DNA of 33,893 bases from an uncultured Thiodictyon sp. (GTDB taxonomy: Bacteria > Pseudomonadota > Gammaproteobacteria > Chromatiales > Chromatiaceae). The stretch lies in NCBI RefSeq assembly GCF_903946935.1, contig NZ_CAJAXH010000230.1, positions 1-33,893 on the forward strand, in the 5' to 3' direction. Shown here piece by piece: positions 4,963 to 25,220 of the stretch. Made by a program: the position numbers and the translations under genes. The notes beneath the pieces are model-generated. The model was not told the DNA's origin. It saw nothing but the letters and a program-made list of their open reading frames with translations, and searched no databases. Numbering within the stretch: the first letter of the stretch is position 1; the number at the start of each line of letters is the position of its first letter.

Positions 4963-5536
4963 CGTCTGCAATGATGTGCGCAATGAGACGATAAGCGCAC
5001 TTTCCCGTTACAGTGACGAAAGCATGTATGATTGGCTAACCTACCGTCTCGAAAATGCCCTTGACCAACTGCGCGAGGAGCAACTAGAAGCCGCTGAAGG
5101 TCCTGAACGCGAACGCCTGGAGCGTGAGGAGTGGATCAGGGAGTTCTGCGAAGACTTACGGCACACGGCGGAAGTCGAATGCCGCAACCCGAACCGGACC
5201 CCAGAGCGCACCCTGCACGCGCTCCTTATGACTCCCGACTTCAAGCCCCTGTTCAGAGACGAACACCGCTCCCGCAAGTGGCGTGAGGAAGCGGCGCAGC
5301 GGGAAGCCGAAGCCAAGCGGGAAGCCGAAGCCAAGGCCCGCTGGCGTGCAGAGTTCCCCCTTGCAGCCGCCGCTGAACAACGGGAGCTCTTGGCCATGGC
5401 ACAGGCCCGCCGGGACCGGGAAGCCGCAGAGATCGCTGCCAAAGCGGCGCAGTGGGCGCAGGGGGAACCTGCCCGGCGTGCCGAAGCCGCCTTGGTTGCG
5501 GCGATCAACCGCCCGGGGCATGATATCTGGGGCTGA
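4928..5536 (+). CDS. Coiled-coil protein of the capsid operon, unknown function
   Basis: The 202-residue protein is highly charged and helical. Its N-terminal part (to about residue 85) contains NVCNDVRNETISALSRY and Glu/Arg-rich helices. From about residue 115 onward it is an Ala/Glu/Arg/Gln-rich stretch with repeats such as REAEAKREAEAKARW, predicted to be coiled coil. The start overlaps the preceding HTH gene by 35 bases. GC is higher than in the portal gene, especially in the repeat part. In phage head operons coiled-coil proteins can be scaffolds, but a scaffold normally precedes the capsid gene, and no family is recognised. Function is open. Confidence 0.6.
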   Translation: MLNPYDLQKIVNVCNDVRNETISALSRYSDESMYDWLTYRLENALDQLREEQLEAAEGPERERLEREEWIREFCEDLRHTAEVECRNPNRTPERTLHALLMTPDFKPLFRDEHRSRKWREEAAQREAEAKREAEAKARWRAEFPLAAAAEQRELLAMAQARRDREAAEIAAKAAQWAQGEPARRAEAALVAAINRPGHDIWG

Positions 5537-5586
5537 ACTGAGTTATGAGCGATCCGGGGGCGATTATGCTTCCCGGGTCGTACACC

Positions 5587-6120
5587 CTATTTGAAAAGAA
5601 GCAGCGGGGGGGATATTCCAATCTCTACCGCTATCCGCGCGCCAAGCTGGCGCATCTGGTCTACTGCATCCCCCATGCGTCGCTTATATGTGGCGTCACG
5701 CTCTTCCGTGCGAGGCTCCTGCATCATTATCGCCACGCCCTTTGCATGAAAATCCTTAACTAACTCAACAAGCTTTTGGTTTCCTAAGACCTCGTGGATA
5801 CTCATTACCTCATCAAATCGCTCTTGGAATTTCTTTTTTTCTTTAGCGCAATCAACATAAGAAAGTGATTGAAAATCAGTTCTCCCCTGTAAGACAAATA
5901 AATCCCTCTCCATTATGGCAAGGATACGCGTGTATACGCAATTAGGAACTGCCTGACTCATCCAAAAATAGAATTGAATTCTATTTTTCATGAATTCTTG
6001 CGCTTCCTTGATAAGCTCTTCCGTTTCTGCTGGGGATATTGCTGGCGAGTCATCTGCAAATATCAATGGGGGCGCAACCGCCACACACACCGCCAGAACC
6101 AGAGCCTGTTTTGTGTTCAC
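5587..6120 (-). CDS. Secreted alpha-helical protein, unknown function
   Basis: The product has 177 residues. A clear signal peptide (hydrophobic ALVLAVCVAVAPPLIFA, cleavage likely after residue 22) leads to a helical mature part. Two cysteines (in NCVYTR and VDCAKE) could form a disulfide, which fits a periplasmic location. The start is GTG at 6118-6120 with only a weak GGA upstream. The gene converges on the capsid operon, and its 3' end lies about 50 bases from the coiled-coil gene. It is AT-richer than the housekeeping genes, which suggests it belongs to the accessory block. Together with the lipoprotein at the left end, it is one of two envelope-directed proteins bracketing the capsid cassette. 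No family is recognised. Confidence 0.6.
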   Translation of the reverse strand: MNTKQALVLAVCVAVAPPLIFADDSPAISPAETEELIKEAQEFMKNRIQFYFWMSQAVPNCVYTRILAIMERDLFVLQGRTDFQSLSYVDCAKEKKKFQERFDEVMSIHEVLGNQKLVELVKDFHAKGVAIMMQEPRTEERDATYKRRMGDAVDQMRQLGARIAVEIGISPPLLLFK

Positions 6121-6278
6121 TGTGTATTGTTCCGTTGAGAAGTTGCACGCCAGCTAATGTTATGCTGCACGAGCACGCGGCGCAACGATGCCTAAGCCCG
6201 TCGCACTCTGCTACCGTTCGTCGGGTCGCTTACACTTTTTGCGTGACTAACAAGCATGTGTAACACACCAAGGGGCCA

Positions 6279-6311
6279 GCATCTATAACAACTTGAAATC
6301 GTTATAGATGC
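6279..6311. repeat. Perfect 11-bp inverted repeat between the phage block and sgp
   Basis: GCATCTATAAC (6279-6289) and GTTATAGATGC (6301-6311) are perfect inverted arms around an 11-base loop. The pairing extends imperfectly outward through GGGGC/CCCC and ACACA/TGTGT. It lies at the transition from AT-richer accessory DNA to chromosomal genes, so it may be a bidirectional terminator or a trace of an element end. Confidence 0.6.
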
Positions 6312-6360
6312 CCCCTGTGTGACCGTCTTTGCAACCACGTCCCGCTTGGGGCATAAGAAA

Positions 6361-6382
6361 GGCCGTGCCCGGGGGCACGGCC
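6361..6382 (-). terminator. Rho-independent terminator of the sulfur globule-like gene
   Basis: GGCCGTGCCC and GGGCACGGCC form a perfect 10-bp GC-rich stem with a 2-base loop. Read on the minus strand, it lies about 27 bases after the stop codon and is followed by TTTCTTAT. Confidence 0.85.
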
Positions 6383-6409
6383 TGGCGGCCTGCGAAGCGC
6401 CGTAGGGAC

Positions 6410-6916
6410 TTACCTGGGTGAAGCTGCCGTCGGGGCGGGCGGCGCGCCGTAAGGGGTCGGCGGTGCGCCATAGCCCGGGGCGCCGTAGCCGCCGCCCGGA
6501 TAACCGTAGGCCGGGCCGCCATAGCCTGGGGCCGCATATCCCGGCGCGCCATAGCCGTAACCAGGTGCGCCGGCGCCCGGGTAGCCGCCATAGCCGCCGC
6601 CCGGGTTGCCATAACCGTAGCCGTAGCCCGGGTTGCCATAGCCGTAGCCGCGGCCGTTGCCGTAACCGCGCCCGTCGCCACGGCCATAGCCGTTGCCACG
6701 ACCGCTGCCGTTACCGCTCATGTTCATGTTGAAATTGCCGTTACCGTCTCCCAGCATGTCGTTCCACATGTCGCCGACCCCGTTGCCGTTGCCCCAGCCG
6801 TTGCCGTTGCCCGGTCCGCCCCAACCGGGGCCGCCCCAGGCCTGCGCGGCGAGGGGGGCGAACGCCGCGGCGCCGGCGATGGCGGCGACACTGATTAATT
6901 TAGAAAAAGGGTGCAT
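6410..6916 (-). CDS. Sulfur globule-like Gly/Tyr/Asn-rich secreted protein
   Basis: The 168-residue product has a signal peptide ([20 protein letters not shown], cleavage after about residue 26) and a low-complexity mature chain. The chain runs from a [13 protein letters not shown] segment, through a short [19 protein letters not shown] block, to GYG-type repeats and a Pro-rich tail. Purple sulfur bacteria coat their periplasmic sulfur globules with such Gly/Tyr-rich proteins (SgpA, SgpB and SgpC in Allochromatium vinosum), and the Asn/Met block resembles that family. The start is chosen because AGGAG lies 11 bases upstream and the signal peptide follows at once; longer upstream readings have no such support. 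The gene diverges from pyrG and ends at a strong terminator. A generic glycine-rich cell-surface protein is the alternative. Confidence 0.7.
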
Positions 6917-11030
<4,114 letters not shown>

Positions 11031-14971: not shown

Positions 14972-17440
14972 TCATTTTTCTTGATAGAGGAACGGCCGAC
15001 GAAACATGCCGCCGAAATGGTGTTCGCAATTTGTCCGCAGGGCAATGGTGTTCCCCTCCTCTTTGAGCCTTCCCGACAGGTCCACATCCCACTCGTGGGC
15101 GAGGTCATTCTGCCACCATATTGGGTCTTGCTCGCGGTGGGCCACGGGTTGGCCGTTGACGTAAAGCCAGGCTTCGTTGAATAGACCAGGGAACCGCAGA
15201 TGCGCCTTGCTCTGTGCTTGGGCAGCCGTCAGTTCGACACTGGTGCGATACCACAGATCGCCCGTAAAGCTCTGTCCGTCCGGGTCGCGGATACCTTGCG
15301 CCTGGGCATAGAGATCCGTGCGCAGGATCTCCCATTGGTCGGGATAGTCCTTTAGGCTTCTGAGCGTGTATTGATCCTTGTTGGCACTCCAGAAGGCCAG
15401 GTCTACTGCCTGCGTGGCGTATTGCTGGGCGACACCCACGCGCTGCTTATCGCGATGGAACGCCCATTCCAAGGGGAGTAGGGCAATCAGTTGGCCATAG
15501 GGTCCGTCCGTGAGGTTGGCCAGTTTGGCATACTGCTGGACCTCACCCGGCCACCAGGCCGGCCCTTTCTCCCCCATCTTGCGATACGTGGTGAAGATGC
15601 CGTTCATGTCGGTCATGTCCTCGCGCACGGCCAGCGCCCGCGCGCCCACTCCCGCCGCCTCTTGATAGCGTCCTTGCGTGGCGGCCAGACTCACCATTCG
15701 CAAATAGCCATCCATGATCGCAAAGCTCATGCGGGTGAACTTCATACGGTCTAAAATCAATTGCTCATTACGCGTACGGTTGGTCTTGCGGGTCAGCGGT
15801 TCGACCAGCTTCTCGGCCTCCTCCAGGCTCCGGCGACAGGTCTCGATCACTGCGGGCGAGTAGATGGCAGGCGCCGCGAAATACTCGTGCTCAGTGACGA
15901 TGGTGTTCGCCCAGGCGGCATAGATCGTGTCCCAGTAAGTCGCCATGGGTGTGGCGGCCGGGCCGTAAAATTTAGGATAGAACTCCTTGAGCAGCAGTTC
16001 GATATCCTCGTCTGGGTTCCACATCAACCGTCCGCGGAAAAACAGGTTGAGAAAGGTGGTGCCGATGGCATTACGGCTCTCGGTATTGATGCCGAGTAGG
16101 CCGGCATCGCGATAGTGTTTGACGTCTTGACGAAACGCCTGATGCGACGGATTAGGCAGATCGCGCCAAACCAGCATGCCCTGGTCGTAATCATAGATCG
16201 CAAGACGGCCCTGCATGATCTTGGCCCAGCGCTTAATCATCTCCCGATACTCCTGGCGCGGCGGCGAATCCGGGGCGTCCATGCCATGATTGGGGTCGAT
16301 ATCGATGGGCGCCAGTTGGCAGAAGAGCGGCGGCTCGGCAGTCATGTCGCGTACCGGCGGGATTGTCATATTCGCATAGGCTAGAAAGCCCAATTTGGCA
16401 TGGCTGTCCGGGTGCTTTTCCTGCAGGATGCGCGCGATGTTGTTATACAGTTCTAGCATCGGGTCGGACACCGACCAGCGCATCATGTATTTGTCCCACT
16501 GGAGCTTCATCAGCGCCACGTCGTTGGGATCGGCCGAGTCGTAAATGCCGTCTGCGATGCTCAGTGAGATGTCTTTACCCTTGGCAAAGTTGGCATCGAG
16601 TTTCCGGGCGATATGTGCCGCCGTGGCCGGTGCGGTGATCGGGAAGTTGAATTTGCCTTGGGCGCCCGGCGCATCCTTGGTGTAGGCGTCAAGGGCATGG
16701 CCATCGGGCGGAAAGCCGCGGGCGCCGGGCAGCATCATGTTCCGTCGCAGAAATTCAGCTCTGCCGGTGCTGTCGCCGACCCAGGAAATCCAGTAGCTGC
16801 GGATCTCAAAAGGCGAGCCGTAGGTGTAATCGAGCGTGCCGACCGCCAGGGTCTTGAGTTCGGGAATTGCCTCGCCGAAATCCGTGGGCATATACCAGCG
16901 GCACCCCCAGCGCCAGAGCAATTCGGCGACCGCAAAATAGTGCGCCTCGTCATTGTTGCCGGCCAGGTATACGCGGTGGCCCTTGCGCAATAGGCCGATC
17001 GCGTCCGCACCCAGTATGGGGTTCGGCTTGGCCGCGGCACGAACGCGCTGCTCCCAATCCGGCAGCGCCTTAAAGGCCTCCTCGCCCACCAAGAAAATGG
17101 GTGCGTTACCCTTAAGCGTGGCGTCGATTTCTTCGCGCGTAAAAGCCACGCGCGGGGACGCACCGGTCATCAGGCCGATATACTTGGCTAGATCCATGGC
17201 AGCCAACCACTCGGCATTGCGCGTTCCTGTGGGCGCCTGGCCGCGCACAAGGCTGCCATCCTTGAGCTTTGTCTCAGGCAGCCCCGCCTCGGGCGAGACG
17301 ACGATCACGGCCTGGGTCTTGCCGGCGGACGCAATGATCAGGTTGCCGGACTTCGACATTCCAGCAACTTGGGCATGTGCATTGCCCAGGATGAACCAGA
17401 ACCCACAGATGAACACAAAGCAACGCATCGAGAGGGTCAT
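14972..17440 (-). CDS. Secreted DUF4838-type glycosidase-like protein
   Basis: This 822-residue protein has a signal peptide (CFVFICGFWFILGNAHA, cleavage near residue 23). It is followed by an alpha-glucuronidase-N-like fold, with AMDLAKYIGLMTGASPRV near residues 80-97 and a HYFAVAELLWRWGCRWYMP segment near 165-185. The middle part matches DUF4838 proteins: LGFLAYANMTIPPVR, PIDIDPNHGMDAPDS, YDYDQGML and FYPKFYGPAATPM. The C-terminal 130 residues resemble a jelly-roll sugar-binding domain (GDLWYRTSVELTAAQAQ, NEAWLYVNGQPVAHRE, WDVDLSGRL). DUF4838 proteins are thought to act on polysaccharides and are commonest in planctomycetes, verrucomicrobia and bacteroidetes, so transfer is likely. The start is supported by AGGA nine bases upstream. 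The substrate and catalytic residues are unknown. Confidence 0.8.
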   Translation of the reverse strand: MTLSMRCFVFICGFWFILGNAHAQVAGMSKSGNLIIASAGKTQAVIVVSPEAGLPETKLKDGSLVRGQAPTGTRNAEWLAAMDLAKYIGLMTGASPRVAFTREEIDATLKGNAPIFLVGEEAFKALPDWEQRVRAAAKPNPILGADAIGLLRKGHRVYLAGNNDEAHYFAVAELLWRWGCRWYMPTDFGEAIPELKTLAVGTLDYTYGSPFEIRSYWISWVGDSTGRAEFLRRNMMLPGARGFPPDGHALDAYTKDAPGAQGKFNFPITAPATAAHIARKLDANFAKGKDISLSIADGIYDSADPNDVALMKLQWDKYMMRWSVSDPMLELYNNIARILQEKHPDSHAKLGFLAYANMTIPPVRDMTAEPPLFCQLAPIDIDPNHGMDAPDSPPRQEYREMIKRWAKIMQGRLAIYDYDQGMLVWRDLPNPSHQAFRQDVKHYRDAGLLGINTESRNAIGTTFLNLFFRGRLMWNPDEDIELLLKEFYPKFYGPAATPMATYWDTIYAAWANTIVTEHEYFAAPAIYSPAVIETCRRSLEEAEKLVEPLTRKTNRTRNEQLILDRMKFTRMSFAIMDGYLRMVSLAATQGRYQEAAGVGARALAVREDMTDMNGIFTTYRKMGEKGPAWWPGEVQQYAKLANLTDGPYGQLIALLPLEWAFHRDKQRVGVAQQYATQAVDLAFWSANKDQYTLRSLKDYPDQWEILRTDLYAQAQGIRDPDGQSFTGDLWYRTSVELTAAQAQSKAHLRFPGLFNEAWLYVNGQPVAHREQDPIWWQNDLAHEWDVDLSGRLKEEGNTIALRTNCEHHFGGMFRRPFLYQEK

Positions 17441-21999: not shown

Positions 22000-23092
22000 T
22001 TAAGAAACAGGGGAAGTACGCAACACCACCCGAAAACCCAGATAGGCGCTGCGATGCTCGGGGAGAGACCAGCCGCGATACGCACAGCGTGCGTACCCTC
22101 GATGGCCGAGCCACGAGCCACCGCGTACGCCCCGCGCTTGATCATCCCTGGCCTCCAGGTCATCAAGGTTCGGGTCGTTCACCTGGCTGTAGTCGATCGT
22201 CCAGAGGCTGCGTGTCCATTCTGAGACATTGCCGATCATGTCGTGCAGACCGAACCCATTGGCCGGGAAGCAGCCGACCGGGGAGGTATCCTCAATCCCG
22301 GAGTCCTTGTAGTTGGCGGCATTTGGGTCGGGCGTATCGCCCCAGGGAAAAACACTCTCCCGCTGCCCGCCCCGCGCCGCCACCTCCCACTCCGGTTCGC
22401 TTGGCAGGCTGACCTGCCAGGCGCCGTCGTGGACCAGCCGGGCGGCCTCGCAGCCCGTCAGGGCCGATCCGCCCACCAGGGACTGGTGCAGCCACCGGCA
22501 GTAGGCCATAGCCTCCCGCCAGGCGATGTAGCGCACCGGTTGGCTGTCCGGATCGCGCAGCGCCCTGAGGTCGCGGGGTCCGGCCCCGGTCGCGGTGACG
22601 AAGACCCCGAACTGCGCGACCGTGACTGGGTAGCGGGCGATGTAGAAGGCCGGCGTCGGCGTACGGGCGTCGTTGATTTCGTGGTCGGACACGTCATGGC
22701 CGATGATCGTCGCGACCCGTGACTTGGCCGACTGCCGCGTGCCGATCCTGAACTGCGGATCGGCCGGGATCGCTACGAAGCCGAGTAGCTCATCCCTCGG
22801 CAGATAGAAGCATTCCGGGTCGAAGCGGGGATCACCCAGGCGGGCGACGAGCTTCCCGACCCGGACGCGCAGGGATGCTTTGAACCTCATCCGGCTGCTC
22901 GGATCGTCCAGCAATGCAATGATCCGCGTGGCGCACTCGGCCTTGAGCGCCTCCCCACTTTCGCGCCATTCGAGCGCGGCGATTCCCGCCAGTTCCGCCG
23001 CAGCGATCCGGGTGTCTGGCGTTTGCCCAGCCCGCGCCAGCGCCGGCAGAAATTTGCGCGCGGACTTGGCAGCATTGGCCCCGAGGTAGCCC
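22000..23092 (-). pseudogene. 3' part of a NACHT-FGE gene: FGE-sulfatase domain, separated by insertion
   Basis: This is the downstream half of one gene interrupted by the 113-bp element at 23098-23210. Read in frame from the element, it begins GYLGANAAKSARKFLP and has a short helical-repeat region (AAELAGIAALEWRE). It ends in an FGE-sulfatase (SUMF1-like) domain: FYIARYPVTVAQFGVF, SLPSEPEWEVAARGG, FPWGDTPDPNAANY, GLHDMIGNVSEWTRS, RGVRGGSWLGHRGYARC and YLGFRVVLR. An internal start near 22914 could still make a 304-residue piece. True formylglycine-generating enzymes need two active-site cysteines in the GGS...C...C stretch; here that stretch reads GGSWLGHRGYARC and lacks the usual pair. It is probably a binding or structural module rather than an enzyme. 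Confidence 0.85.
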
Positions 23093-23097
23093 GCTAG

Positions 23098-23210
23098 CAG
23101 CCTGTCGGACTTGATGGCGTAACCGATTGATTAAACAGGAAAACGACTTTTTGGCGCAAAAGAGGAAACTCTTTGCATTCAATCGGTTGCATCACTAAGT
23201 CCGACAGCCT
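23098..23210. mobile_element. 113-bp MITE-like insertion in the NACHT-FGE gene
   Basis: The ends are inverted repeats built on CTGTCGGACTT (from about 23101 and to about 23207), extended by a second matching block around AACCGATTGA. The 5-bp sequence GCTAG is present on both sides (23093-23097 and 23211-23215), as expected for a target-site duplication. The interior is AT-rich and encodes nothing. Removing the element and one GCTAG rejoins the flanking gene in frame. It looks like a non-autonomous derivative of an insertion sequence; the parent family was not identified. Confidence 0.85.
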
Positions 23211-24916
23211 GCTAGGAGCAGGATGGGCTCACGCCACCAGGGATCGTTCAGTCGGTCCTCGAGGTGCTTGACGATCTCGGGGTGGCCGCCCTCCCTGCCG
23301 GTCACCTCGAGCAGGTAGCGCGCGGCGAGGAACTCCTGGAAGGCCAGGTGGATGAAGCGGTAGACCCCGGCGCGCTCCTCCAGCACGCTGCCGCGCTGGC
23401 GGGCGCTCTGCAGGAAGTCGTCGATGCGCGGAATGAAGTCGGCCTCCCTGCGCAGCGCGGCTTTGATCGCCGCCTCTTCGATCTCGCGCCCCTGGTCGCG
23501 GCCCTGTGCGTGCATGTGGAAGGCGAGGTGTTGCGCCATGTCGCGGAAGGGCTTCCAGTCGGTCGAGAGCTCTCGGATGTCGCCCTCCTCGCGCCCGTAG
23601 TCCACCTGCAACAGGGCATTGATGGCCTTGTCGAACAGTTCAGCGCGCTCGTCGGGCAGGCGGCGGTTGTTAACGTGAACAATGAGCAGCAGGCGCACCA
23701 TCAGGGGGCTGTCGATCAGGGCCTCGAATTCCTTGCCCAGGCGCCTGCGGCGGTCCTGCTCCAGCCGCCCGATTCCGTCCAGCAGGTCGGTCACCCGCTC
23801 GCCGCGCAGGGCGGCATCTTGCGGGTAGATGCAGTCATAGGCCTGGCGGACCATCGGGGTTATGTGGGCATCGAGCCCGAGCGGCCGGACGAGGATCTCG
23901 CAGAAGCCCGCGCCCAAGGCGGTGCGCCCGCTGGGATAGGCGACGGTCCGACAGGTGACTAGCACGCGCATCGCCTCGCGCCCGCTCACCAGGTCCTCGA
24001 CACATTGGCGGACCTCGAACCGCTCGGACTCGTTGGCCACCTCGTCGAGCCCGTCGAGCAGCAGGAGAAGGTCCCGGCCATCCTGAAGGACTTGGACGAA
24101 AAAGTCGGCAGGGAGGTCGAAGTCGGCCTGCCGTTCAGTCAGGTGGTACGAGACGAAGTGTGCCAGGGTACGCTCGCGGGGGGGCGCGTTGCCCGGCAGC
24201 TTGCGCCGATAGCGCGCGAAGGACGCGAGCGGTACGAAAATGGGCAACGGCAACTCGTCCGGAGGGACATCGATCTGGACGAAACGAGGAGGGGCCGGCT
24301 TGAGTTTCCGGCTCGCCCGCATGGCTTTAGGCGGTGCAGTGACCTCTATCTTCTTCTTCAGTGCAAGGCGCGAATGCGCCGGTTCGGGCTCCCCGGTTAA
24401 CAGTGACGCGGCCAATGCCCAGGCCATGTGCACCAGTACGGTGGTCTTTCCGGACCCCGGCCCCCCGACGATTGCCAGGCGATTGCCCAATCCCAACACC
24501 TTGCTCAGGGGCAGATCCTCCCCGCTACCCGCCATCCACTTGGCTTGCAGCGGCACATAGGCCGTCTCAAGCGGCAGTATCACCACGGGCGCCCCGCCCG
24601 CCCGCTCAATCCCGCGCAGTTCGATGCACTCGGTGCGCGAACGCAACCAGCGCAGGTAGCCGGTCACCTGGCGGGCGATCTGCTCCTTGCTCAGGCGTCC
24701 GCTAGCGGCGGTGAAGTAGTTGGTGACGATCTGGGTGCCGGTGACGATGGTCTCGGCGTCACCCTCGACCTTGACGCTGCGCTCGCCCAATGCGTCGCTG
24801 CCGCCTTGGGCCATGGCGCCGGAGCCGCGGAGGTTCGCTGCTTGCCCGGCCTCCAGTTCGGCCACCCGGCGCCTCAGCGCCGCGATGTCATTCGGATCGA
24901 TGGAATCGGCTGCCAT
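23195..24916 (-). CDS. NACHT-domain NTPase (NLR-like), C-terminally truncated by insertion
   Basis: The remaining 573-residue product is the N-terminal and NTPase part of a larger protein. Residues 47-65 (SVKVEGDAETIVTGTQIV) form a small Gly/Asp-rich beta segment seen ahead of many bacterial NACHT modules. The Walker A motif is GGPGSGKTT at 151-159, and Walker B is LLLLLDGLDEV near 283-293, with a sensor-like VLVTCRTVAY following. The conserved FIHLAFQEFLAARYLL lies near 532-547. STAND NTPases of this class act as signalling switches, and several bacterial NACHT proteins protect against phages. The stop (at ...LLLAGCRT) comes from the element at 23098. The ATG at 24916 is preferred to a start at 25033, which lies inside the DUF433 gene. 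It begins 67 bases after that gene. Confidence 0.88.
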   Translation of the reverse strand: MAADSIDPNDIAALRRRVAELEAGQAANLRGSGAMAQGGSDALGERSVKVEGDAETIVTGTQIVTNYFTAASGRLSKEQIARQVTGYLRWLRSRTECIELRGIERAGGAPVVILPLETAYVPLQAKWMAGSGEDLPLSKVLGLGNRLAIVGGPGSGKTTVLVHMAWALAASLLTGEPEPAHSRLALKKKIEVTAPPKAMRASRKLKPAPPRFVQIDVPPDELPLPIFVPLASFARYRRKLPGNAPPRERTLAHFVSYHLTERQADFDLPADFFVQVLQDGRDLLLLLDGLDEVANESERFEVRQCVEDLVSGREAMRVLVTCRTVAYPSGRTALGAGFCEILVRPLGLDAHITPMVRQAYDCIYPQDAALRGERVTDLLDGIGRLEQDRRRRLGKEFEALIDSPLMVRLLLIVHVNNRRLPDERAELFDKAINALLQVDYGREEGDIRELSTDWKPFRDMAQHLAFHMHAQGRDQGREIEEAAIKAALRREADFIPRIDDFLQSARQRGSVLEERAGVYRFIHLAFQEFLAARYLLEVTGREGGHPEIVKHLEDRLNDPWWREPILLLAGCRT

Positions 24917-24983: not shown

Positions 24984-25220
24984 TCATACGTTGCCGATGG
25001 CGGTTTCAACCTCGGACGAGCGCCAGGCGGCATAGCTCAGCGCCTGGGCGATGTCTTCCGGTTCCAGATAGGGATACAGGGCCAGGATCTCTGGCTGGTC
25101 ATGGCCGCTCGCGATCATTCCAACGATCATCCCGACGGTTACGCGCATACCCCGGATGCAGGGCTTGCCACCCATGACCGCGGGGTCAAGGGTAATCCGG
25201 TCGAGTCGTTTCCATTCCAT
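24984..25220 (-). CDS. DUF433 protein (antitoxin-like), copy 2
   Basis: This 78-residue protein is a near-duplicate of the DUF433 protein at 19691-19948 (70 of 77 aligned residues identical), with the same PAVMGGKPCIRGMRVTV core. DNA similarity between the copies extends over the whole coding region and a few bases beyond its start. As with copy 1, the DUF5615 nuclease normally paired with it is missing; instead the NACHT gene follows 67 bases downstream on the same strand. It may be an orphan antitoxin, or it may have been recruited to regulate the NACHT gene. It shares the strand of prfA and lies about 100 bases downstream of it. Confidence 0.82.
   Translation of the reverse strand: MEWKRLDRITLDPAVMGGKPCIRGMRVTVGMIVGMIASGHDQPEILALYPYLEPEDIAQALSYAAWRSSEVETAIGNV

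What the first reader, a model, noticed from the sequence alone, without database searches (positions are those of the whole stretch)
22000..24916. NLR-like NACHT-FGE gene split by a MITE, with exact frame repair on removal
The two open frames are halves of one gene. Deleting the 113-bp element (23098-23210) and one GCTAG copy removes 118 bases from 2917, leaving 2799, exactly 933 codons, and restores LLAG-YLGANAAK across the joint. The intact protein would have a NACHT switch, helical repeats and an FGE-fold end, an architecture resembling bacterial immune NLRs. Its inactivation by a mobile element suggests the system is costly or recently lost.
Basis: partly seen in the sequence, partly recalled or inferred. 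Interest (0 to 1): 0.7.

Follow-up and report, generated by a model that had tools for sequence, protein, structure and literature searches.

The report
Decayed hypermutation-derived bacterial NLR-like sensor
In a purple sulfur bacterium, a gene shaped like an animal immune sensor, whose tip carries the scars of a targeted-mutation system, has been cut in two by a tiny mobile DNA element; the same element also broke a sister gene, and the mutation machinery itself looks dead.

Summary
68 complete copies were found in this genome, all flanked by CTAG, 47 identical to the window's. The net 118 bp breaks a 933-codon gene; an intact 932-aa orthologue beside the same neighbours in a congener aligns to both halves without a gap. 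It is modelled as NACHT, helical stalk and FGE fold.

A template repeat survives beside a paralogue (contig C287), whose variable repeat differs from it at 19 of 25 adenines and 0 of 96 other bases. Between close homologues of the window gene, template-adenine positions differ at 72-80%, other positions at 14-26%, like the upstream background (19-23%). The paralogue is split by the same MITE, and the adjoining DGR reverse transcriptase is a C-terminal relic. The window gene fits no template found, so it is a former target, not an active one. Defence is inferred. Closest precedent: Thiohalocapsa PB-PSB1 (PMC10907252). New member of a known kind.

The parts
22000..24916 (-). Interrupted NACHT-FGE gene (933 codons without the insert, stop included)
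   Evidence: intact orthologue L177:7178-9976(-), 932 aa
23212..24916 (-). Upstream half: N-terminal extension, NACHT, helical region and start of helical stalk
   Evidence: model of the orthologue
24443..24466 (-). Walker A, GGPGSGKT
24041..24070 (-). Walker B, LLLLLDGLDE
23098..23211 (.). MITE, 114 bp, imperfect terminal inverted repeats; carries the premature stop at 23195-23197
23094..23097 (.). Target-site duplication copy, CTAG
23212..23215 (.). Target-site duplication copy, CTAG
22000..23097 (-). Downstream half: rest of helical stalk and FGE/C-type-lectin domain, no stop before the end
22024..22656 (-). FGE-sulfatase (PF03781) domain
22011..22131 (-). Old variable repeat (VR) of DGR type: against the C287 template 18 of 25 adenines and 20 of 96 other bases differ

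Best explanation
The gene is a bacterial NLR-like sensor descended from a DGR-diversified family and recently inactivated by a MITE. Inferred mechanism of the intact protein: a NACHT switch on a helical stalk is held off until the C-type-lectin tip, whose ligand surface was randomised by adenine-directed mutagenic retrohoming, meets its target; the NACHT then oligomerises and triggers a response. The effector may be a separate protein, since the genus proteins scanned show no recognisable N-terminal one. In this strain the gene is cut in the stalk (orthologue helix 559-575), so the NACHT half is truncated and the tip is out of frame. Shown here: gene structure, MITE identity, orthology, DGR footprint, truncated reverse transcriptase next to a surviving template. 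Inferred: ligand sensing, defence role, response.
For: MITE: 68 complete copies, all with CTAG. Orthologue: 932 aa, no gaps, same neighbours. Fold: mean pLDDT 80.6; among the 50 Foldseek rows shown the matches are FGE-fold proteins (FGE, ToxD, PvdO, EgtB, PorK, TvpA) and NLRs (NLRC4, NOD2, NLRP3); TvpA also by sequence, 8e-11. DGR: C287 TR/VR 19/25 A, 0/96 other, p 2.6e-17; two further own-genome VRs, C216 17/25 and 1/96, C287 minus-strand gene 11/25 and 2/96. Window, G007, G003, G005 C880, six pairs: TR-adenine positions 72-80% different, other positions 14-26%, upstream 19-23%; 0 of 845 slid placements of the mask reach the observed count (window against G007 only). 9 of 9 template AAY codons are NNY in the window, background 55%. 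The Accumulibacter regalis homologue is a cis DGR target with a full-length RT: 17/27 A, 0/78 other. RT relic on C287: 80% identical to residues 218-360 of 361 of that RT; no match to the earlier part.
Against: No phage or ligand evidence. No PADLOC match for the intact orthologue. No recognisable N-terminal effector. The NLR matches of the model have low TM-scores (0.22-0.26 by query length) and rmsd near 13 A, so they speak for the domain kind, not for the whole arrangement. The window VR fits no TR found: 20 of 96 non-adenine mismatches make any DGR action on it old. Both halves still look constrained, so how long the gene has been dead is unknown. G000 is a 321-contig assembly; an RT on unassembled DNA is possible. 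G005 C880 lies on a 3.3-kb contig, so its orthology by place is not shown.
Confidence: 0.85

Rival explanations
1. The FGE end was never touched by a DGR; its variable surface reflects ordinary positive selection on a ligand-binding face.
For: C half has higher dN/dS than N half (0.28-0.37 against 0.18-0.24); no TR found matches the window gene.
Against: Changes sit at the adenine positions of a template found beside a paralogue, near the random expectation there and at background elsewhere; all nine AAY codons keep a pyrimidine third base in the window.
Confidence: 0.07
2. The MITE is a reversible switch: clean excision in part of the population turns the sensor back on.
For: Exact 118-bp frame arithmetic; many identical copies suggest recent mobility.
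Against: No empty allele seen (one assembly only); no transposase with these ends found in the genome; a net 118 bp is what any 114-bp element with a 4-bp duplication gives.
Confidence: 0.06
3. Assembly artefact from a high-copy short repeat.
For: 68 near-identical copies in a 321-contig assembly; several copies lie next to contig ends.
Against: 114 bp is short enough for ordinary reads to span; each of the 68 copies has its own flanks and CTAG pair; both flanks here match one gene of G007.
Confidence: 0.03
4. The two frames are separate working genes (sensorless NACHT and stand-alone lectin).
For: Both halves are open without further lesions; the G001 (probably Lamprocystis purpurea) homologue ends before the FGE part.
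Against: Four genus homologues are one frame through both halves; the element offers no in-frame ATG, GTG or TTG for the second half (by eye), whose first listed start is internal, TTG at 22914; the G001 copy looks decayed.
Confidence: 0.04

Closest known systems
Thiohalocapsa sp. PB-PSB1 DGR 3 and DGR 6 targets (Dore et al. 2024, PMC10907252; abstract, sections 6, 7, 10, 12, 18 and found passages read)
   Same: STAND/NACHT NTPase fused to a C-terminal CLec/FGE domain carrying a DGR variable region, in a purple sulfur bacterium; transposons and MITE-like repeats that degrade DGR parts; incomplete DGRs and candidate remote targets.
   Different: There MITE-like arrays replaced RT or TR, and eight of nine loci were still diversified in nature. 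Here a single 114-bp MITE cuts the sensor frames themselves, the only DGR RT found is an N-terminally truncated relic, and the window gene lies beside prfA-hemA away from any template.
Treponema denticola variable protein TvpA (PDB 2y3c)
   Same: FGE-type fold: 8e-11 by sequence, Foldseek rank 47.
   Different: No NACHT (recalled); its DGR origin is recalled and from a reference title seen.
Bacterial NACHT proteins (bNACHT) in phage defence (PMC12169576, search listing with start of abstract only)
   Same: Central NACHT; NLR-related.
   Different: Here no effector domain was found, no phage test exists, and no PADLOC model fits the orthologue.
Candidatus Accumulibacter NACHT-FGE loci with DGR (L243, L245)
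   Same: 60-63% identity in best segments, same domain order; L243 has TR, RT and adenine-only VR differences in cis.
   Different: L243 is one open frame; N-termini are longer (caspase domain in L245, sub-cut-off DUF4062 in L243).

Membership tests
MITE | Short, terminal inverted repeats, no transposase | tested here: met
   114 bp; arms match at 28 of 35, 84% over 37 nt with the duplications
MITE | Target-site duplication | tested here: met
   CTAG on both sides in 68 of 68 complete copies
MITE | Many near-identical copies | tested here: met
   69 end hits, 68 complete copies, 47 identical to the window copy
MITE | Autonomous partner with the same ends | tested here: inconclusive
   None among the 69 end hits of this genome; partial end matches in congeners gave no clear partner
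NLR-like NACHT protein | NACHT with Walker A and B | tested here: met
   PF05729 2.5e-9; motifs; Foldseek NLRC4, NOD2, NLRP3, low TM-scores
NLR-like NACHT protein | C-terminal sensor-type domain | tested here: met
   FGE/CLec end in orthologue and window half; sensing itself not tested
NLR-like NACHT protein | N-terminal effector | tested here: not met
   No Pfam domain before the NTPase in the window half (E up to 0.001) or the G007, G005 C418 and two G004 proteins (E up to 0.01). So it is called NLR-like, not filed as a tripartite bNACHT or Avs member.
NLR-like NACHT protein | Shown anti-phage activity | not testable with these tools
   No experiment possible
DGR target (active) | CLec-fold C-terminal domain with variable repeat | tested here: met
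DGR target (active) | Template repeat identical except at adenines | tested here: not met
   Window gene: nearest template 18/25 A but 20/96 other mismatches. Met for the C287 paralogue (0/96), nearly for C216 (1/96). The window gene is filed as a former target only.
DGR target (active) | Functional DGR reverse transcriptase in the genome | tested here: not met
   Three RVT_1 matches at E up to 0.01: C319 (with Cas1 beyond the MITE), C69 (not DGR-like by eye), C287 relic; assembly is fragmented
Formylglycine-generating enzyme | Two catalytic cysteines (role recalled) | tested here: not met
   Positions of human C336 and C341 (named by the C336S and C341S entries) align with G and A

The most novel reading that the evidence does not exclude
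DGR-matured sensors can be hard-wired. A receptor whose tip was randomised by a DGR has settled beside prfA-hemA in several species without any matching template found, keeping a species-specific frozen specificity like an innate receptor, and is then repeatedly lost: of the nine close family copies seen in the genus, five are broken, by different lesions. Trans-acting DGRs, explored for PB-PSB1, are the main alternative.
Probability: 0.25. Interest if true: 0.6.

Novelty: new member of a known kind. Interest (0 to 1): 0.45.

Why it matters
It extends NACHT-CLec DGR sensors, proposed in PMC10907252 as antigen sensors, to the Thiodictyon/Lamprocystis group, and shows stages of decay side by side: fresh variable repeats, an intact template, a truncated reverse transcriptase, and sensors cut by copies of one recently spread MITE. 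If the frozen copies work, bacteria may turn hypermutated receptors into fixed ones, which population sequencing of one syntenic locus could test.

Tried and rejected
Natural split gene: rejected. Active FGE enzyme: rejected, catalytic cysteines absent. Window VR as a current target of the C287 template: rejected, 20/96 non-adenine mismatches. A template inside the window: none; the only [RK]GG[SA][WYF] motif is the gene's own. Known defence family by PADLOC: none for the orthologue; the N half has two weak hits at its P-loop, mad8 5e-4 and GajB 8e-4. Parent insertion sequence: not found; a G005 contig with a partial end match has a transposase-like frame (by eye) but no clear pair of ends. 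Solved structures for the N half by sequence: 0 hits at E up to 0.1. Frames downstream of the G007 orthologue read as spurious. Enrichment of MITEs in FGE genes: 3 of the 5 in-phase intragenic copies; the binomial 3e-5 uses a guessed 1.5% share and a class chosen afterwards, so I do not lean on it.

Full report
Observation. The window is contig C230 of a 5,995,245-base, 321-contig genome. On the minus strand a frame starting at 24916 runs through a NACHT domain to a stop at 23195-23197, and an open stretch from 23097 to 22000 carries an FGE-sulfatase domain. Between them lies a palindromic element. In the 40 copies printed the base before the left CTAG varies while a G always precedes the right CTAG, so the element is 114 bp (23098-23211) and the duplication is CTAG. 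The end pattern has 69 hits in the genome and 0 for the reversed control. 68 are complete 114-bp copies with CTAG on both sides, 47 identical to the window's; one (C72) is cut by a contig end; one of the 68 (C6) has diverged, 18 mismatches. Of 190 genomes searched for the element, 5 match, the own one included, all in the genus, with up to 4 candidates scored per genome; the nearest is a full-length 96% copy in G005. The finding's arithmetic is right: 2917 - 118 = 2799 = 933 codons.

Orthology. Of 288 genomes searched with the N half at E <= 1e-30, 6 match, own included, all in one genus; only up to 4 candidates per genome were scored, so counts are lower bounds. Nine gene copies result. Four are single frames through both halves: G007 932 aa, G005 C418 998 aa, G004 936 and 1109 aa. 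Five are broken: the window and C287 by the MITE, G003 and G005 C880 by single-base frameshifts (drafts, so sequencing error is possible), G001 by a stop followed by unrelated sequence. G007 and G003 carry the gene beside prfA and hemA, as the window does; prmC lies on the other side in the window and, about 3 kb away, in G007. Against G007 both halves align with no gap (567 + 365 codons), dN/dS 0.18 and 0.34; other pairs give 0.20-0.24 (N) and 0.28-0.37 (C). The insertion is therefore read as recent. G001 is probably Lamprocystis purpurea DSM 4197 and G005 Thiodictyon Loclat_bin-12166 (contig lengths equal). G007 is probably Thiodictyon syntrophicum Cad16 (7.74 Mb in the abstract start of PMC5944118).

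Build of the protein. The intact orthologue was folded from an alignment of 23 sequences, itself included: mean pLDDT 80.6, pTM 0.76. A poorly predicted N-terminus is followed by the NTPase, a helical region, a helical stalk to about residue 654, and the FGE fold, most of whose blocks exceed 90. In the 50 Foldseek rows shown, FGE-fold proteins and the NLRs NLRC4, NOD2 and NLRP3 appear, the NLRs with TM-scores of only 0.22-0.26 by query length; TvpA is at rank 47. The MITE falls in the stalk helix 559-575. The two FGE catalytic cysteine positions read G and A. No Pfam domain precedes the NTPase in the window half or four genus proteins. Homologues elsewhere have other N-termini: a caspase domain in Accumulibacter contiguus, a sub-cut-off DUF4062 in A. 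regalis, ParA-like and TPR in Methylumidiphilus. All 8 scanned carry NACHT and FGE (8 of the 27 loci, which are 27 of 80).

The DGR. Downstream of the paralogue on C287 (N half 51-67%, C half 56% identical) lies a 121-nt template repeat, L118 5509-5629. The paralogue's own 3' end differs from it at 19 positions, all among its 25 adenines, none among 96 other bases (p 2.6e-17). Two more own-genome genes carry variable repeats of this template: C216, 17/25 and 1/96; the minus-strand C287 gene, 11/25 and 2/96. The window gene shows 18/25 and 20/96 (p 3e-6), so it is not a current target. Among the window, G007, G003 and G005 C880 (six pairs), template-adenine positions differ at 18-20 of 25 (72-80%; random expectation 75%), other positions at 13-25 of 96, and 400 nt upstream at 19-23%; sliding the mask upstream for window against G007 gives at most 14 against 19 observed in 845 placements. 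All nine AAY codons of the template are NNY in the window gene (background 55%). This is the mark of past adenine-directed mutagenesis in each lineage. In G007 (3 contigs) two places match the template at E <= 0.001: the gene's own end and a different template next to another RT, so no cognate template was found there either.

State of the machinery. This genome has three RVT_1 matches at E <= 0.01: an RT whose gene continues as Cas1 beyond a MITE (C319), a short RT on C69, and a piece on C287. The C287 piece matches residues 218-360 of the 361-residue A. regalis DGR RT at 80% and the A. contiguus RT at 82%; the stretch from the template onward matches the start of the A. contiguus ORF at 66%, so the N-terminal part of the RT appears deleted. 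Six of the seven other congeners have 1 to 12 RVT_1 matches, G002 none (not all are DGR). In A. regalis the homologous NACHT-FGE gene is a cis target with a full-length RT: 17/27 adenines, 0/78 others. 9 of 87 loci tested hold an adenine-biased pair, C287 among them; loci were cut at about 4 kb of flank and only motif-based pairs were tested.

Where the MITEs sit. Of 63 copies with at least 150 nt on both sides, 5 lie inside a frame that is in phase across the site: the window gene, the C287 paralogue, an FGE gene on C90, the RT-Cas1 gene on C319, and a repeat protein on C14 (TPR-like by eye). 44 show no coding signal on either side, 12 on one side, 2 are other arrangements; 5 further copies were too near contig ends. 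With 150-nt flanks a sixth appears. The caller recognises 80 of 98 known coding pieces, so some are missed. CTAG is not confined to intergenic DNA: 12 of 15 in the window, the two duplication copies included, fall in frames I listed as likely genes. Survivors inside genes are thus few, and three of the five hit FGE-domain genes. That fits relaxed need for these genes here; it does not show cost.

Literature. Searches (13 papers, all listed; 20 of 682 listed; 0; 15 of 25; 4) searched the held library for DGR, NACHT, formylglycine, MITE, Thiodictyon, Lamprocystis, Accumulibacter and CTAG terms. PMC10907252 (abstract, sections 6, 7, 10, 12, 18 and passages read) already describes NACHT- and nSTAND-CLec DGR targets in Thiohalocapsa PB-PSB1, MITE-like arrays replacing RT or TR, and candidate remote targets. 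PMC7159879 (passages) links FGE-type domains to DGRs in conflict systems. No listed title or abstract start reports this Thiodictyon-group locus. The kind is known; the instance, the cut sensors and the orphan copies are new as far as those searches show.

Noticed in passing
G000:C319, L138 (292-2115 and 2174-3508); MITE in L135: An RT-Cas1 gene (CRISPR adaptation type) is split by the same MITE; the RT part and the Cas1 part match families separately.
   Followed up: partly
L119 (G000:C90) 2072-2185: Another FGE-domain gene is split by the same MITE; two more copies lie on this stretch, at 6-119 and 7044-7157.
   Followed up: partly
L118 (G000:C287) 5509-6444: Template repeat intact, but the adjoining DGR reverse transcriptase lacks its N-terminal part.
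   Followed up: yes
L120 (G000:C6) 1893-2006: A diverged, older MITE copy (18 mismatches) inside what reads by eye like a ribonucleotide-reductase fragment.
   Followed up: no
window 24984-25220: DUF433 small gene (2.9e-23) just upstream of the NACHT-FGE gene; possible antitoxin-like partner (recalled).
   Followed up: no
L245 3047-6727 and 6731 onward: Accumulibacter contiguus: caspase-NACHT-FGE gene followed by a frame that holds a template repeat and an RT together.
   Followed up: partly
L243 3305-6544: Accumulibacter regalis NACHT-FGE DGR target with a sub-cut-off DUF4062 N-terminus, a domain recently reported as a TIR-like NADase (PMC13174449, title, abstract start and passages).
   Followed up: no
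window 14972-17440: Large protein with DUF4838 and a glycoside-hydrolase-2 sugar-binding-like region.
   Followed up: no
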